NCBI GenBank assembly: GCA_945860955.1
Contig: CAMATH010000025.1
Coordinates: 1 to 64,000 of the forward strand
Length of the DNA stretch: 64,000 nucleotides
From: Planctomicrobium piriforme
GTDB taxonomy: Bacteria > Planctomycetota > Planctomycetia > Planctomycetales > Planctomycetaceae
Direction of reading: 5' to 3'
Shown here piece by piece: positions 21,951-28,141 of the stretch. Below the pieces are notes generated by a model. That model was not told the origin of the DNA. It did not search any database and saw nothing but the letters and a program-made list of their open reading frames with translations. Both the position numbers and the translations under genes were made by a program. Positions within the stretch are counted from its first letter, which is position 1; every line of letters begins with the position of its first letter.

Positions 21951-22508
21951 ATGTTCCATATCGGCGTAAACAGGTACAATCGCCGGTTCTCCTTGTTGCG
22001 TTCAAGCGATGTGGTAATGCAGACTCGGCGAGTTGTCCCTGTACAGCAGTTGTTGTCAACTCCAGAGAAGTTGCATGGCGCGATATGGCAACAGTTGATT
22101 TGCGATTCCCGACTCACCGGAGAATCCGTTTCATTGCGGGAGTTTTATTGGTATTATTCCTTTGTAATTGACGTCGAAATGAGCGGGTTTGGAAAGTACA
22201 TGCGAGTCGTCGTCGAACGAGATTGCGATCGACTACATAAGACAAGGAACGCACTTCGGCATTTTGGACTGGGAGAATTATTTGAGCTGCATGAGCGCGC
22301 AGTAGAAATGTCGATTGGATACTTCGAGAGGGCGTTAGAGATTCTGAAGGGCAATAATGTTGGTGAATGGGAGAGCCCACTTCCTCAACTGCTGGCGAAT
22401 GAAGTGGAACTGAATCGGCTGTTTCGTGAACAGTATCATGATTGCCTGACTCGCGTCGCGTCACACATTGGCGAACACATTGAAGAATTTAGTATTGAGA
22501 GTCGTTGA
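21951..22508 (+). CDS. DMP19/DUF4375-like protein, AT-rich gene
   Basis: 185 residues with no signal peptide. The segment SLREFYWYYSFVIDVEMSGFGKYM followed by a helix and RNALRHFGLGELFELHERAVEM resembles the DMP19-like DUF4375 pattern (here ...EVxNGGFxQYFxN... with altered GGF), so membership is tentative. The coding sequence is visibly AT-richer than its neighbours, which may mean recent transfer. It starts 19 bases after the SGNH-like gene. Several in-frame starts exist (21951, 22017), and the first 25 residues may not belong. A second, clearer DUF4375 protein is at 51064. Confidence 0.6.
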   Translation: MFHIGVNRYNRRFSLLRSSDVVMQTRRVVPVQQLLSTPEKLHGAIWQQLICDSRLTGESVSLREFYWYYSFVIDVEMSGFGKYMRVVVERDCDRLHKTRNALRHFGLGELFELHERAVEMSIGYFERALEILKGNNVGEWESPLPQLLANEVELNRLFREQYHDCLTRVASHIGEHIEEFSIESR

Positions 22509-22785: not shown

Positions 22786-22814
22786 TTGACGACGCGTTCC
22801 AAGTCGCCTATATT
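22786..22814 (+). promoter_or_regulatory. Predicted sigma-70-type promoter of the cimA leader
   Basis: TTGACG (22786-22791), 17-base spacer, TATATT (22809-22814). Optimal spacing and good boxes, with the expected start point at about 22821. It lies 58 bases before the leader-peptide ATG and 266 bases before the cimA start, so the message has a long leader containing the attenuator. Confidence 0.6.
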
Positions 22815-22871: not shown

Positions 22872-22970
22872 ATGTTCTGCGAATTCGTCCACCACTCAGT
22901 CGTCGCGCACCGTACCGATGCTGGCATCGTGCGGATTGTCGTGATTATTGGACGAATCGTCCCGACCTGA
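22872..22970 (+). CDS. Ile/Val-rich leader peptide of the cimA attenuator
   Basis: A 32-residue frame ATG 22872 to TGA 22968-22970. The last 15 residues are GIVRIVVIIGRIVPT; in total it has five Ile and seven Val, with nine of them in the final 14 codons (ATC GTG, ATT GTC GTG ATT ATT, ATC GTC). The two other frames across the stretch are not enriched in these residues. The stop lies inside RNA segment 1 of the attenuator. No Shine-Dalgarno is visible at 22872 (GTG 22929 is a shorter alternative start). The composition fits a sensor of charged tRNA-Ile and tRNA-Val, as in ilv leaders of other bacteria, and the gene downstream makes an isoleucine precursor. Confidence 0.75.
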   Translation: MFCEFVHHSVVAHRTDAGIVRIVVIIGRIVPT

Positions 22971-23042
22971 GGCGTGGCCCCTGTTCCGCACTTTCAACCG
23001 CCCCTCAGGTCGCCGACCTGAGGGGCGGTTTTCGTTTGTTTT
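22963..23042 (+). promoter_or_regulatory. Transcription attenuator (antiterminator/terminator switch) of cimA
   Basis: Three segments can be drawn. Segment 1 is CGACCTGAGG (22963-22972), segment 2 contains CCTCAGGTCG (23003-23012) and segment 3 is the 3' arm of the terminator. Segments 1:2 pair 10 of 10. Segments 2:3 form the 16-bp terminator at 22996-23030. The two pairings share bases 23003-23011, so they exclude each other. The leader stop codon TGA (22968) is in segment 1. A ribosome that reaches the stop covers segment 1 and lets the terminator form; a ribosome stalled on the Ile/Val codons at about 22935-22949 leaves segment 1 free for the antiterminator. Confidence 0.78.
22996..23042 (+). 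terminator. Intrinsic terminator in the cimA leader
   Basis: Perfect stem of 16 bp (22996-23011 with 23015-23030; arm AACCGCCCCTCAGGTC), loop GCC, followed by TTTTCGTTTGTTTT. It lies upstream of the cimA start at 23080 and has no other gene end nearby on the plus strand except at 22508, so it is best read as the off-state of the attenuator. Confidence 0.85.
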
Positions 23043-23079: not shown

Positions 23080-24690
23080 GTGGCCCAGATCGAGCTGTAC
23101 GACACCACCCTGCGCGACGGTAGCCAGGGAGAAGGCATTTCCTTCTCTTTGGAGGACAAGCTGCAGATTACGGCGCGGCTCGACGCCTTGGGTTTCGATT
23201 ACATCGAAGGGGGCTACCCGCTCTCGAATCCCAAGGATGCCGAGTATTTTGAACGCGTCCGCGATTTGAATATCACTCACGCGACCGTCGCCGCTTTTGG
23301 CATGACCCGCCGGCGTGGCTGCGCCCCCGAAGATGACATCGGAATGAAGGCTCTGGTCGCTTCCCAGGCGAAAACCATCACCATTGTGGGCAAGACCTGG
23401 GATCTGCACGTCCACGAGGTACTTCAGGTCGACGAAGCCGAGAACCTCGCGATGATCAAGGATTCGGTCGGCTGGCTCGCCAGCCAGGGGAGGGAGTTGC
23501 TGTACGATGCCGAACACTTTTTCGACGGCTACTTCGCCAATCCCGAATTCGCGCTAAAAACGATTGTGGCCGCCCAGGACGCCGGTGCGCGTATGGTCAT
23601 TCTGTGCGACACCAACGGTGGCCGACTTCCCGAACATGTCGCCGAGGCGGTTGCCGCCGCGCGACGGGCACTGAAGATTCCAGTCGGTATCCACTGCCAC
23701 AACGACTGCGATCTGGCGGTCGCCAATTCGCTGGCTGCGGTCGACGCCGGGGCGATCCAAGTGCAGGGAACGATCAATGGAATTGGCGAACGGTGCGGGA
23801 ATGCGGATCTGATCAGTCTGGCGGCCAATCTGGCGCTCAAGAAGACGGGGTTTCAAGTGCTGCGCACGACCGATGGTGTCAAACATCTGACGGAGTTGTC
23901 GCGGTACGTCTACGAACTCGCCAACATGAATTTCCGATCGAATCAGCCGTTCGTCGGAACGAGCGCGTTCGCCCACAAGGGGGGAATGCACGTCAGCGCG
24001 GTCAACAAGCTGGCGAGCAGCTACGAGCACATTCCTCCCGAGAAGGTGGGCAATGTCCGCCGGGTTCTGGTCAGCGAGCTGTCTGGCCGTTCCAACATCG
24101 TCGCCAAGACCACCAAGTTTCAACTGCAGCATGACTCGCAGTTGATGGCGAAAATTCTCGACAACGTGATGACCCTGGAGGCGAAAGGCTACCAATTCGA
24201 AGCCGCCGAGGCGTCGTTCGATTTACTGGTCACGAAAGTCGCCGGCACCTACAAGCCGAAATTCGAACGGATTCATTACCGCGTCAACGTGATGACGAAC
24301 GAGGGGGCCGAGCCGTTGACGGAAGCGACAGTCAAACTCCAGGTTGGCGGCCGTACGGAACATGTCGTCGGCGAAGGAGACGGCCCGGTGAACGCGCTCG
24401 ACCAGGCGTTGCGTAAGGCGCTCGAACCGACCTACCGCCGACTGTTGGAAATCAAACTTGTCGACTACAAGGTACGAGTCATCAACTCCGCCGAGGGGAC
24501 AGCCGCCCGGGTGCGTGTGGTGATTGAATGTCGGGACGAGAAAGATGTCTGGAGTACCATCGGCGTGAGTGAGAATGTCATTGAGGCGAGCTGGCTGGCG
24601 CTGGTCGACAGCATTGAATACAAACTGTTCAAGGACGACGGTGTACTGGGAGATTCGATTACCCCTCTGGAAGTCGGCTCCCAAGGATGA
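23080..24690 (+). CDS. cimA: Citramalate synthase (LeuA-related)
   Basis: 536 residues from GTG 23080. It condenses pyruvate with acetyl-CoA to (R)-citramalate, the first step of the threonine-independent route to 2-oxobutanoate and isoleucine. The catalytic TIM barrel begins ELYDTTLRDGSQGEGISFS (with the Arg-Asp pair and metal Asp), and the metal-binding HCHNDCDLAVANS and NGIGERCGNADL follow. The substrate segment IEGGYPLSNPKD is typical of the CimA-like branch rather than 2-isopropylmalate synthase. The C-terminal 150 residues form the LeuA regulatory domain, which implies end-product feedback. Transcription is predicted to be controlled by the leader attenuator. The small membrane gene overlaps its stop (ATGA), and valS follows. 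Confidence 0.93.
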   Translation: MAQIELYDTTLRDGSQGEGISFSLEDKLQITARLDALGFDYIEGGYPLSNPKDAEYFERVRDLNITHATVAAFGMTRRRGCAPEDDIGMKALVASQAKTITIVGKTWDLHVHEVLQVDEAENLAMIKDSVGWLASQGRELLYDAEHFFDGYFANPEFALKTIVAAQDAGARMVILCDTNGGRLPEHVAEAVAAARRALKIPVGIHCHNDCDLAVANSLAAVDAGAIQVQGTINGIGERCGNADLISLAANLALKKTGFQVLRTTDGVKHLTELSRYVYELANMNFRSNQPFVGTSAFAHKGGMHVSAVNKLASSYEHIPPEKVGNVRRVLVSELSGRSNIVAKTTKFQLQHDSQLMAKILDNVMTLEAKGYQFEAAEASFDLLVTKVAGTYKPKFERIHYRVNVMTNEGAEPLTEATVKLQVGGRTEHVVGEGDGPVNALDQALRKALEPTYRRLLEIKLVDYKVRVINSAEGTAARVRVVIECRDEKDVWSTIGVSENVIEASWLALVDSIEYKLFKDDGVLGDSITPLEVGSQG

Positions 24691-24950
24691 CCCCTCTCAA
24701 GTGGCGGTTTGTGATCGCGGGCGGGGTGATCACCCTGTTCGGCGCGATCTTGATGTCTCAACCCCCCGCATCGGAACCGAATGGGTTCCGCAAAGGGGGT
24801 GTCCTGGTTGTCCTGGGAGTCGTACTGGCCATTACCGGTCTGATGCGACGCGATGCCGAATCGGCCGAAGGCGATTCCCCCCGCCCCCGGATTTTTGATC
24901 CTGAGGAAGGTTCGTCGGATACCACACGCCCATTGACGCCCGAGAAGTGA
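24687..24950 (+). CDS. Small membrane protein with two helices
   Basis: 87 residues. Two hydrophobic helices (FVIAGGVITLFGAILM and GGVLVVLGVVLAITGLM) are followed by a charged, proline-rich cytoplasmic or periplasmic tail of 35 residues. The ATG overlaps the cimA stop by four bases, so it should be cotranslated with cimA and come under the same attenuator. I recognise no family and can give no function. The overlap argues that it is a real gene. Confidence 0.65.
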   Translation: MTPLKWRFVIAGGVITLFGAILMSQPPASEPNGFRKGGVLVVLGVVLAITGLMRRDAESAEGDSPRPRIFDPEEGSSDTTRPLTPEK

Positions 24951-25168: not shown

Positions 25169-28141
25169 ATGTCCGCCGAACTTCCCAAAGCGTACGAGCC
25201 GAAACTGGTGCAGCCCCGCTGGCTCGAAATCTGGAACGACCGCGGCTATTTCAACGCCGACCCAGACTCGGCGAGGAAACCGCACACGATCATGATTCCG
25301 CTCCCCAATGTCACGGGGGCGCTTCACATGGGTCACGCGCTGAACGGTACCTGCCAGGATCTGATCACCCGCTGGCGTCGCATGCAGGGTCGCGTCGCAC
25401 TGTGGATGCCAGGGACCGACCATGCCGGCATCGCCACCCAGGCGGTCGTCGAACGGCGGATGCTCGAAGAAGAAAAGTTGACCCGCCACGACATCGGCCG
25501 GCAGGCGCTTGTCCAGCGAATCTGGCAGTGGAAAGACGAATACGAAGCGCGGATTCTCAACCAACTGAGGCAACTCGGGGCGAGTTGCGACTGGCGCCGC
25601 ACACGGTTCACACTTGACGACGTTTGTTCGCGAGCCGTTCGCAAGACGTTTTTCAATCTCTTTCGCGATCGACTCATTTTCCGCGGCAAACGGCTCGTCA
25701 ACTGGGACACCTTCTTACAGACCGCCGTCGCCGACGACGAAGTCTTCACCGAAAACGTCCAAGGGCACTTCTGGACGTTCACGTACCCGGTTGTGGGGAC
25801 CAATGAGACCATCGCGTTCTCGACCACACGCCCCGAGACAATGCTGGGAGACACCGCCGTCGCGATTCATCCCGAAGACGACCGGTACCGCCATCTGCAC
25901 GGCAAATTTGTGCGGATTCCGCTCAACGGCCGCGAAATCCCGATTGTCACCGACGCGCTGCTCGTTGACCGCACGCTGGGGACCGGCGTTGTCAAAGTGA
26001 CACCGGCGCACGACCCCAATGACTATGCCTGTGGTCAGCGGCAGAGACTGCCGATGATCAACATTCTCAACCCGAACGGGACACTCAACGAAAACGCCGG
26101 CCGCTGGCAGGGACTCGATCGCTACGAGGCCCGGACCCAGGTTGTCGCCGAGATGGAGAAGCTCGGACACCTGGTGCGGATCGAAGATCGCGAGATCCCG
26201 CTGGCGCACAGCGACCGCAGCAAGACGACGATCGAGCCATACTTGTCGGATCAGTGGTTCGTCAAGATGGAGACGCTCGCCGAGAACGCCCTGCTCGCCG
26301 TTCGCGAAAGTCGGGTCAAGTTCTTCCCGTCGCGCTACGCCAAGACCTATCTCGACTGGCTGGGGGAAAAACGGGACTGGTGCATCAGCCGGCAGTTGTG
26401 GTGGGGACACCAGTTTCCAATCTGGTACTGCGACACCTGCACCGAAGCCGACTTGCAAGCGGCGTTCGGCGACCGCACCGACGTTGTTTTTCAGCGCGAC
26501 GCCGAGGACCGCTGCTGGCTCATTTGTGGCGAGACCGATATCGCGGTGGACGCACTGGGAGCGGGACACACCCTGCGGCGTGACGACGACGTTCTCGATA
26601 CGTGGTTCAGCTCGGCACTGTGGCCGATGGCGACACTCGGCTGGCCCGACCAGGATCACAATCCTCCGCTGTCGGGACAGCCCGATCCGTCCTCGACGGG
26701 AAGCAACGCGGTTCTCGATTTCTTCTATCCCACCAACGTGCTGATCACGAGCCGGGATATCATCACGCTGTGGGTCGCCCGCATGGTGATCATGGGGTTG
26801 TACAACCTGGGCAAAGTTCCGTTCGCCCACGTGCATGTGCATCCCAAGATCCTCGACGGTTTCGGCCAGACGATGTCGAAGAGCAAGGGGAATGGGGTCG
26901 ACCCGCTGGATCTGATCGACAAATACGGCGTCGACGCGGTCCGGTTCACGATCGCTTCGCTCGCGGGCGAAAGCCAGGACGTCCGGCTGCCGGTCGGGTA
27001 CGAATGTCCGGCGTGTGCCGAGGTGATCGCACAGACAATCGAACACCAGAAAGCCATTCCCGCTGGTGGTGCCAAGCCCCGCTTGAAGTGCCCCAAGTGC
27101 AAAGCGAACCCGCAATACAGCAGCCCGTGGTTCGTTCCCGATGAAGGAGAACCGGTCGCCCGTGTGGTCAGTGATCGCTTTGAGTACGGCCGCAATTTCT
27201 GCAACAAATTGTGGAACGCGACCCGGTTCGCGTTCATGAACCTGACCGGCTATACCGCGGGCCCGGTCGCGGAGGATGAACTGCGTCTCGAGGACCGATG
27301 GATTCTCAGCCGGTTGACAACCACCGTCCGCACGGTCAACGCGGAACTCAATGACTATCACTTCGACGCCGCCACCCGTGCGCTCCGCGACTTTACGTGG
27401 AACGAGTTCTGTGACTGGTATGTCGAGATGATCAAGCCGCGACTGCGCGACGAGCGGTTCCGGCCAGCGGCGCAGCGGGTTCTGGTCGGAGTGCTGGACG
27501 TTCTCCTGCGTCTGCTTTCGCCGTTCACTCCGTTCCTGTGTGAGGAACTGTGGGCCAAGTTGAACGAACTCGCCCCCGAACGGGGACTTCCCTCCCCTGC
27601 CCAGGCGGCCGAGGCGTGCATGATCGCCCCGTGGCCCGAACTTCCTCCAGGCTGGCGCGATGTCGAACTCGAACGCCGATTCGAGCGGTTGCAAGAATTG
27701 ATTGCCGCCGTTCGCAATGTCCGCGCGATGTATCGCATTGAAGACAAAGTCGAACTGGCGCTGCACATTCGCTGTCAACCCGATGTCGCGACGCAACTGC
27801 AGGATGTCGCCTCGCAGTTTTCGAACCTGGCGAAAGCGGTTCTCAAGGGAGTCGGCATTGATGTGACACGGCCGGGAACGTCGGCGAGCTTTTCGCTGAC
27901 CGACGCCGACGGTTTCATTCCGCTGGCGGGTGTTGTCGACCGGGAGGCGGAGGTCGTCCGTCAAAAGAAAGAAGCCGAGAAACTGCGCGGCTTCATTTTG
28001 GGACATGAGCGGAAGCTCGGAAATCAGAGCTTCGTCGGCAAAGCCCCGCCGGAGGTTGTCGAGCAGGTGCGCGAAACGCTGGCCGGCTTGCAGAAACAGT
28101 TGCTGAGTGTGGAAGAGATTATCAAGCAGCTCGGAGAGTGA
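25169..28141 (+). CDS. valS: Valyl-tRNA synthetase
   Basis: 990 residues. It attaches valine to tRNA-Val in the cytoplasm. The class I signatures are ALHMGHALNG (HIGH motif, residues 53-56) and TMSKSKGN (568-575), in which the first Lys of KMSKS is Thr. The editing CP1 domain (STTRPETMLGDTAVAIHP) is complete. Just after KMSKS there is an insertion with two CxxC pairs (613/616 and 641/644), a probable zinc ribbon that is absent from the E. coli enzyme. The anticodon-binding helical domain and the C-terminal coiled-coil arm (from about 925) are present. No T-box or other leader is visible. Neighbouring cimA gives a branched-chain amino-acid theme. Confidence 0.97.
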   Translation: MSAELPKAYEPKLVQPRWLEIWNDRGYFNADPDSARKPHTIMIPLPNVTGALHMGHALNGTCQDLITRWRRMQGRVALWMPGTDHAGIATQAVVERRMLEEEKLTRHDIGRQALVQRIWQWKDEYEARILNQLRQLGASCDWRRTRFTLDDVCSRAVRKTFFNLFRDRLIFRGKRLVNWDTFLQTAVADDEVFTENVQGHFWTFTYPVVGTNETIAFSTTRPETMLGDTAVAIHPEDDRYRHLHGKFVRIPLNGREIPIVTDALLVDRTLGTGVVKVTPAHDPNDYACGQRQRLPMINILNPNGTLNENAGRWQGLDRYEARTQVVAEMEKLGHLVRIEDREIPLAHSDRSKTTIEPYLSDQWFVKMETLAENALLAVRESRVKFFPSRYAKTYLDWLGEKRDWCISRQLWWGHQFPIWYCDTCTEADLQAAFGDRTDVVFQRDAEDRCWLICGETDIAVDALGAGHTLRRDDDVLDTWFSSALWPMATLGWPDQDHNPPLSGQPDPSSTGSNAVLDFFYPTNVLITSRDIITLWVARMVIMGLYNLGKVPFAHVHVHPKILDGFGQTMSKSKGNGVDPLDLIDKYGVDAVRFTIASLAGESQDVRLPVGYECPACAEVIAQTIEHQKAIPAGGAKPRLKCPKCKANPQYSSPWFVPDEGEPVARVVSDRFEYGRNFCNKLWNATRFAFMNLTGYTAGPVAEDELRLEDRWILSRLTTTVRTVNAELNDYHFDAATRALRDFTWNEFCDWYVEMIKPRLRDERFRPAAQRVLVGVLDVLLRLLSPFTPFLCEELWAKLNELAPERGLPSPAQAAEACMIAPWPELPPGWRDVELERRFERLQELIAAVRNVRAMYRIEDKVELALHIRCQPDVATQLQDVASQFSNLAKAVLKGVGIDVTRPGTSASFSLTDADGFIPLAGVVDREAEVVRQKKEAEKLRGFILGHERKLGNQSFVGKAPPEVVEQVRETLAGLQKQLLSVEEIIKQLGE

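What the first reader, a model, noticed from the sequence alone, without database searches (positions are those of the whole stretch)
22872..22970. Unannotatable leader peptide ending in GIVRIVVIIGRIVPT
Nine of the last 14 codons are Ile or Val, and the codons alternate ATC, ATT, GTC and GTG. The other two frames across the same bases show no enrichment, so this is not base composition. The frame is too short for normal gene callers. Using both Ile and Val may let one sensor read two amino acids that share the downstream pathway enzymes.
Basis: partly seen in the sequence, partly recalled or inferred. Interest (0 to 1): 0.75.

Follow-up and report, generated by a model that had tools for sequence, protein, structure and literature searches.

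The report
Ile/Val leader-peptide attenuator before cimA-valS
Just upstream of an isoleucine-biosynthesis gene, this planctomycete encodes a tiny isoleucine/valine-rich peptide whose translation probably decides whether the gene is transcribed. Relatives across the phylum have the same kind of switch, and they carry extra valine codons when the valine tRNA-charging gene (valS) follows in the operon.

Summary
A 32-codon ORF (22872-22970) has 9 Ile/Val among its last 14 codons, the only such case among 1,700 stop-ended frames in the window. Its stop codon lies 25 nt before a 16-bp intrinsic terminator, followed by cimA (citramalate synthase) and valS. The stop codon sits inside a segment that can pair with the terminator's 5' arm, i.e. 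an antiterminator. Relatives show this is a conserved element. In 80 distinct planctomycete cimA upstream regions, ORFs ending just before the terminator are enriched for Ile (z=26) and less for Val (z=7.5). In the same family leuA has a parallel Leu leader (z=11). Antiterminator pairing peaks at the leader's stop codon (-15.9 versus about -7 kcal/mol) and covaries between loci. The best reading is ribosome-mediated transcription attenuation, sensing Ile-tRNA and, here, Val-tRNA. Val codons track valS downstream of cimA (2.7 versus 0.6 per leader; MWU p=5e-10 over 93 loci; PGLS p=4e-6 over 78), and no other amino acid does so comparably. Rfam has no match, and no paper in the searched library describes it. 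The mechanism is a known kind; the lineage and codon-to-operon matching appear new. Nothing was tested experimentally.

The parts
22786..22814 (+). sigma-70-like promoter TTGACG-17-TATATT; predicted transcription start about 22820
   Evidence: 1 found, 0.1 expected in shuffles; consensus match only
22872..22970 (+). leader peptide ORF MFCEFVHHSVVAHRTDAGIVRIVVIIGRIVPT* (ATG start preferred; GTG 22929 possible)
   Evidence: frame conserved in same-genus L003 and L299
22926..22961 (+). sensing codons: 5 Ile (ATC/ATT) and 4 Val (GTC/GTG) in codons -14 to -3 before the stop
   Evidence: Ile frequency across relatives peaks at codon -10 and is near zero at -1 to -3
22963..22977 (+). antiterminator 5' segment (CGACCTGAGG.GTGG), containing the leader stop codon TGA 22968-22970 and copying the terminator 3' arm
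   Evidence: pairs with 22998-23012, -23.3 to -26.7 kcal/mol
22996..23040 (+). intrinsic terminator: arms 22996-23011 and 23015-23030, loop GCC, T-rich tail
   Evidence: 16 pairs, -32.8 kcal/mol; conserved in relatives
23080..24690 (+). cimA, (R)-citramalate synthase (threonine-independent isoleucine pathway), first regulated gene
   Evidence: TIGR00977 666 bits, cut-off 450
24687..24950 (+). small ORF of unknown function, overlapping the cimA stop; genus-level only
   Evidence: no family; one relative, L003, 40%
25169..28141 (+). valS, valyl-tRNA synthetase, probably cotranscribed with cimA
   Evidence: NF004349 1046 bits, cut-off 704; no promoter or terminator found between cimA and valS; synteny in 112 of 176 scorable cimA loci

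Best explanation
It is a ribosome-mediated transcription attenuator for a cimA-orf-valS operon. Proposed working: RNA polymerase transcribes the leader from about 22820 with a ribosome following. When Ile-tRNA and Val-tRNA are charged, the ribosome runs to the stop codon at 22968-22970. There it covers the segment 22963-22977, so the later-made segment 22998-23012 pairs with 23015-23030, the terminator forms, and transcription stops before cimA. When Ile-tRNA or Val-tRNA is short, the ribosome stalls at codons -14 to -3. Segment 22963-22977 then stays free and pairs with 22998-23012 before the terminator's 3' arm is made, and cimA and valS are transcribed. Ile codons report the product of the cimA pathway. 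Val codons most likely report the substrate of ValS, the second enzyme of the operon. Shown by computation: the leader, its conservation, the amino-acid specificity, the terminator, the antiterminator pairing centred on the stop codon, and the Val-valS association. Inferred: translation, stalling, termination, and cotranscription with valS.
For: Amino-acid test that does not choose the frame by Ile or Val: ORFs ending within 70 nt of the terminator, 80 distinct cimA upstream regions, Ile z=26.1, Val 7.5, Leu 0.6; 19 leuA regions of the same family, Leu z=11.1, Ile -1.9. Stop-to-terminator spacing 25-33 nt (interquartile); sensing codons peak at -10 in both cimA (Ile 56%) and leuA (Leu 75%) and are near absent at -1 to -3. 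Pairing of the stop-codon region with the terminator 5' arm is -15.9 kcal/mol at the stop versus about -7 elsewhere, combined z -17.5; leuA the same. A set chosen by Ile content alone gives the same (combined z -18.8). Native arms pair better than arms swapped between loci (-15.9 versus -12.7; none of 2,000 permutations), which indicates covariation. Val codons track valS downstream: 2.72 (61 loci) versus 0.63 (32), p=5e-10; PGLS slope 1.66, p=3.5e-6 over 78 loci, p=3e-4 at lambda=1, not explained by G+C; before two labels were corrected, 24 of 30 nearest contrasting pairs had higher Val with valS and 3 lower.
Against: No expression, ribosome-profiling or reporter data. No Shine-Dalgarno-like sequence directly before ATG 22872. 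About half of scorable planctomycete cimA loci lack a detectable leader, for example Isosphaeraceae records. At equilibrium the terminator (-32.8) is more stable than the antiterminator (-23.3), so the model needs cotranscriptional order. A trp-like protector hairpin is only weakly indicated (combined z -2.4), so the state without translation is unclear. Val sensing rests on a correlation, and cotranscription with valS rests on synteny and absence of signals.
Confidence: 0.87

Rival explanations
1. The leader senses Ile (and Val) because the ilv enzymes are shared, as in the enterobacterial ilvGMEDA leader; Val codons have nothing to do with valS.
For: Ile plus Val leaders are known before ilv genes (actinobacterial ilvB, PMC1262725), and Ile and Val do share enzymes downstream of CimA.
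Against: Val codons fall to background where valS is not downstream, with phylogeny and G+C taken into account. cimA itself is Ile-specific. ilvB has no leader in these genomes.
Confidence: 0.1
2. Nascent-peptide arrest (TnaC or Erm-leader type): the peptide in the exit tunnel, not codon decoding, stalls the ribosome in response to a free ligand.
For: Short hydrophobic C-terminal region; stop codon at the switch position.
Against: Outside Ile/Val the peptides share no motif; position and number of Ile codons vary between species; leuA leaders use Leu with the same geometry. This is what codon sensing predicts.
Confidence: 0.04
3. The ORF is incidental; the hairpin is an ordinary terminator of an upstream transcript or another kind of riboswitch or T-box.
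For: The terminator is strong by itself, and terminators often follow genes.
Against: Upstream gene ends at 22508, about 490 nt away; no Rfam family matches, even at permissive thresholds; Ile enrichment is frame-specific at z=26; the stop-codon segment pairs with the terminator arm in relatives; same-genus relatives keep the frame.
Confidence: 0.02

Closest known systems
Enterobacterial ilvGMEDA leader (ilvL) attenuator (from general knowledge)
   Same: Short leader with Ile and Val codons before a branched-chain amino-acid biosynthesis operon; mutually exclusive antiterminator and terminator; multivalent sensing.
   Different: Controls cimA-valS rather than ilv genes; leader sequence unrelated; Leu codons not enriched; no strongly conserved trp/ilv-type protector hairpin; Val codons come and go with valS.
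Actinobacterial ilvB leader peptides with terminators (Seliverstov et al. 2005, PMC1262725; C. glutamicum ilvBNC, PMC11857589)
   Same: Ile/Val/Leu-rich ORFs close to a terminator before a branched-chain amino-acid gene.
   Different: Different phylum and gene. There the mode of regulation was reported unclear in Streptomyces, and ORFs overlap the terminator; here the stop codon lies in a separate antiterminator arm 25-35 nt before the terminator.
Enterobacterial leu operon leader (leuL; from general knowledge)
   Same: The own-genome leuA attenuator (L002: MTNSTLLSLDLLLSPHLREV*) has the same logic, and the leaders over-use the rare Leu codon CTA (17 of 124 versus 1 of 148 in own cimA+valS).
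   Different: Sequence unrelated; same compact architecture as the cimA attenuator.
Attenuators of aminoacyl-tRNA synthetase genes (leuS and trpS in Streptomyces, PMC1262725; hisS in bacilli, PMC2965389)
   Same: Leader codons match the amino acid charged by the downstream synthetase.
   Different: Here valS is a distal gene behind cimA, and its codons are added to an Ile leader, giving a two-input sensor.

Membership tests
Ribosome-mediated (classical) transcription attenuators | Short leader ORF rich in codons for the amino acid of the regulated pathway | tested here: met
   9 of 14 Ile/Val; 80 loci, Ile z=26.1
Ribosome-mediated (classical) transcription attenuators | Intrinsic terminator between leader and first structural gene | tested here: met
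   22996-23030, 16 pairs plus T tail; conserved in relatives
Ribosome-mediated (classical) transcription attenuators | Antiterminator mutually exclusive with the terminator, placed so that a ribosome at the stop codon blocks it and a ribosome at the sensing codons does not | tested here: met
   Pairing peak at the stop codon; sensing codons centred at -10
Ribosome-mediated (classical) transcription attenuators | Protector (1:2) hairpin that gives termination without translation, as in trp/his/ilv of enterobacteria | tested here: inconclusive
   Weak signal, combined z -2.4 over 99 loci; not significant in the window itself
Ribosome-mediated (classical) transcription attenuators | Leader is translated and transcription read-through rises on starvation for the amino acid | not testable with these tools
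   No expression data available
T-box riboswitch | Match to a T-box covariance model | tested here: not met
   No match of any Rfam 15 family at gathering; only chance hits at permissive thresholds
ilv-type leader | Located upstream of ilv genes (ilvB/G/N/C/D/E/A) | tested here: not met
   First gene is cimA; ilvB regions of own genome and 19 relatives have no leader attenuator

The most novel reading that the evidence does not exclude
Planctomycetota use a widespread family of compact attenuators with the leader stop codon inside the antiterminator arm. Their sensing codons are gained and lost together with the genes they serve: Ile codons alone for cimA, Ile plus Val when valS is in the operon, Leu for leuA. 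The leader's codon content then reads out the operon's gene content and makes a natural two-input sensor.
Probability: 0.7. Interest if true: 0.7.

Novelty: new member of a known kind. Interest (0 to 1): 0.6.

Why it matters
To my knowledge, and in the papers searched here, leader-peptide attenuation has not been described in Planctomycetota; Naville and Gautheret (2010) stated it was then known only in Proteobacteria and Actinobacteria and added bacilli. The element is unannotated (no Rfam match) and recurs in about half of the planctomycete cimA loci examined. The Val-valS association is a natural experiment: 13 inferred gains or losses of synteny allow a direct test of how attenuator codons evolve to match an operon's genes. 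It also predicts that ValS shortage switches on an Ile-biosynthesis gene in this species but not in relatives without the synteny.

Tried and rejected
Rfam at gathering and permissive thresholds gave nothing relevant. Search for the terminator core elsewhere in the own genome found only cimA and one site without a T tail, so it is not a dispersed repeat. ilvB upstream regions of own genome and 19 relatives: terminator-like hits in only 2 of 20, no leader. valS in genomes where it is away from cimA has no leader attenuator of its own. Literature searches for planctomycete attenuation or cimA leaders found nothing relevant; Lopatovskaya et al. 2010 (PubMed 20198868), the most likely prior survey, is not held, so prior mention cannot be excluded. 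Two loci first scored as lacking valS (G001, G030) have it 1.46-1.47 kb downstream and were relabelled; the association was significant before and after. A trp-like protector hairpin was sought and is only weakly supported.

Full report
CHECK OF THE OBSERVATION. The ORF 22872-22970 translates to MFCEFVHHSVVAHRTDAGIVRIVVIIGRIVPT*; 9 of its last 14 codons are Ile or Val. The other frames across the same bases are not enriched. Of 1,700 stop-ended 14-codon stretches in the six frames of the window, this is the only one with at least nine Ile/Val. A promoter-like site at 22786-22814 and a perfect 16-bp terminator at 22996-23030 frame it. The next gene is citramalate synthase (TIGR00977, 666 bits against a cut-off of 450), then a small ORF, then valS. 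No promoter or terminator was found between cimA and valS.

ANATOMY. The leader's stop codon lies in the sequence CGACCTGAGG, a copy of the terminator's 3' arm (GACCTGAGGGG). It can therefore pair with the terminator's 5' arm: 22963-22972 with 23003-23012 plus 22974-22977 with 22998-23001, -23.3 kcal/mol when the 3' arm is not yet made. The terminator alone is -32.8, and it forms freely if a ribosome on the stop codon masks the first segment. Geometry and order of synthesis fit ribosome-mediated attenuation.

COMPARATIVE TEST 1, AMINO ACID. cimA upstream regions were taken from one genome per species within the family and class and from named contigs. For every amino acid, the maximum count in the last 20 codons of any ORF ending within 70 nt of the terminator was compared with dinucleotide shuffles. 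Over 80 distinct cimA regions Ile stands out (z=26.1), Val follows (7.5), Leu is at chance (0.6). Over 19 leuA regions of the same family, used as an internal control, Leu stands out (11.1) and Ile does not. The own genome has both: the cimA leader in the window and a leuA leader MTNSTLLSLDLLLSPHLREV* with its own terminator (L002).

COMPARATIVE TEST 2, SWITCH. Without using pairing to choose sites, the region around the leader stop pairs with the terminator 5' arm at -15.9 kcal/mol on average, against about -7 at 20 nt or more upstream; the best duplex is centred within about 3 nt of the stop. A set picked by Ile content alone repeats this (combined z -18.8). Arms swapped between loci pair worse (-12.7; none of 2,000 permutations reached the native value). 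Loci whose arm is not the CTCAGG type pair well only with their own arm type (-17.5 versus -11.8), so the sequences changed together. Sensing codons peak ten codons before the stop in both cimA and leuA and vanish in the last three, as expected if a stalled ribosome must leave the stop region free. A trp-like protector hairpin is at most weakly present.

CLOSE RELATIVES. Of three other genomes in the genus, two hold the cimA upstream region. G062 (L299) has ...MAGIAAVIIGQIIAA* followed by CCTGAGGCG-type bases and the same terminator core; G046 (L003) has ...LLISEVIHVRIRRIDLA* and a terminator.

WHY VALINE. cimA makes an isoleucine precursor only, so Val codons need an explanation. valS lies downstream of cimA in 112 of 176 scorable loci. 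Among leaders, those with valS downstream have 2.72 Val in the last 20 codons (61 loci) against 0.63 without (32 loci), p=5e-10, with two labels corrected; Ile does not differ. On a cimA tree of 78 loci, PGLS gives slope 1.66, p=3.5e-6 at the best lambda and 3e-4 at lambda 1. Adding G+C does not change it. No other amino acid comes close: the next smallest p is 0.008, for Pro, in the opposite direction. With the uncorrected labels, parsimony gives 13 synteny changes, and in 30 nearest contrasting pairs Val is higher with valS in 24, equal in 3, lower in 3. The simplest reading is that Val codons serve valS. In genomes where valS has moved, it shows no leader of its own, and ilvB, the enzyme truly shared by Ile and Val, has none.

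SPREAD. 101 of 192 distinct cimA loci have an Ile leader whose stop pairs with the terminator arm; within the loci most similar to the window, 55 of 63 do. Named records with the element include Gimesia, Gemmata, Pirellulaceae, Phycisphaerae and Tepidisphaeraceae; Isosphaeraceae records such as Aquisphaera and Singulisphaera GP187 have none. Two deltaproteobacterial cimA loci (L097, L101) have a longer Ile/Leu/Val leader and a terminator.

COMPARISON WITH KNOWN SYSTEMS. It works like, and meets the sequence criteria for, classical ribosome-mediated attenuation. It is not a T-box (no Rfam match) and not an ilv-operon leader by position. Held literature describes attenuators with leader peptides in Proteobacteria, Actinobacteria and bacilli (PMC2965389; PMC1262725), and no paper found describes them in Planctomycetota. 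One likely survey was not held, so priority is not proven.

LIMITS. Everything is computational. Translation, stalling, premature termination and cotranscription are inferred. Absence of valS was judged within about 1.2-3 kb downstream, so a few labels may be wrong; the two errors found both strengthened the association. MAG contigs are included. The tree is of one gene.

Noticed in passing
L002 (own genome contig C236), about 90-240 nt upstream of leuA: A parallel Leu-rich leader (MTNSTLLSLDLLLSPHLREV*) with terminator before leuA; in nearly all of 20 relatives examined too, with the rare Leu codon CTA over-represented (17 of 124 Leu codons versus 1 of 148 in own cimA+valS).
   Followed up: partly
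L097 and L101, about 90-200 nt upstream of cimA: Deltaproteobacterial cimA loci carry a longer leader ...NIIVIISATGILLPLLLLVVV...GPGLIMT* with Ile, Leu and Val runs and a terminator whose arm resembles the GCCTGATAA near the leader end.
   Followed up: no
window 24687-24950: Small ORF of 87 codons overlapping the cimA stop (ATGA); no Pfam or NCBIfam match, found only in one same-genus relative (40%).
   Followed up: partly
L082, L084, L088: cimA directly followed by valS also in Omnitrophota, suggesting an old gene pairing well outside planctomycetes.
   Followed up: no
L299 (G062:C875): In this same-genus genome cimA is only about 61-69% identical to the window's, while the adjacent valS start is 98.8% identical; recombination or a mixed metagenome bin.
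   Followed up: no
L057, L060, L053, L213, L215, L216, L218, L221: Isosphaeraceae-type loci keep cimA (often with valS) but show no leader or terminator, an apparent loss of the attenuator.
   Followed up: no
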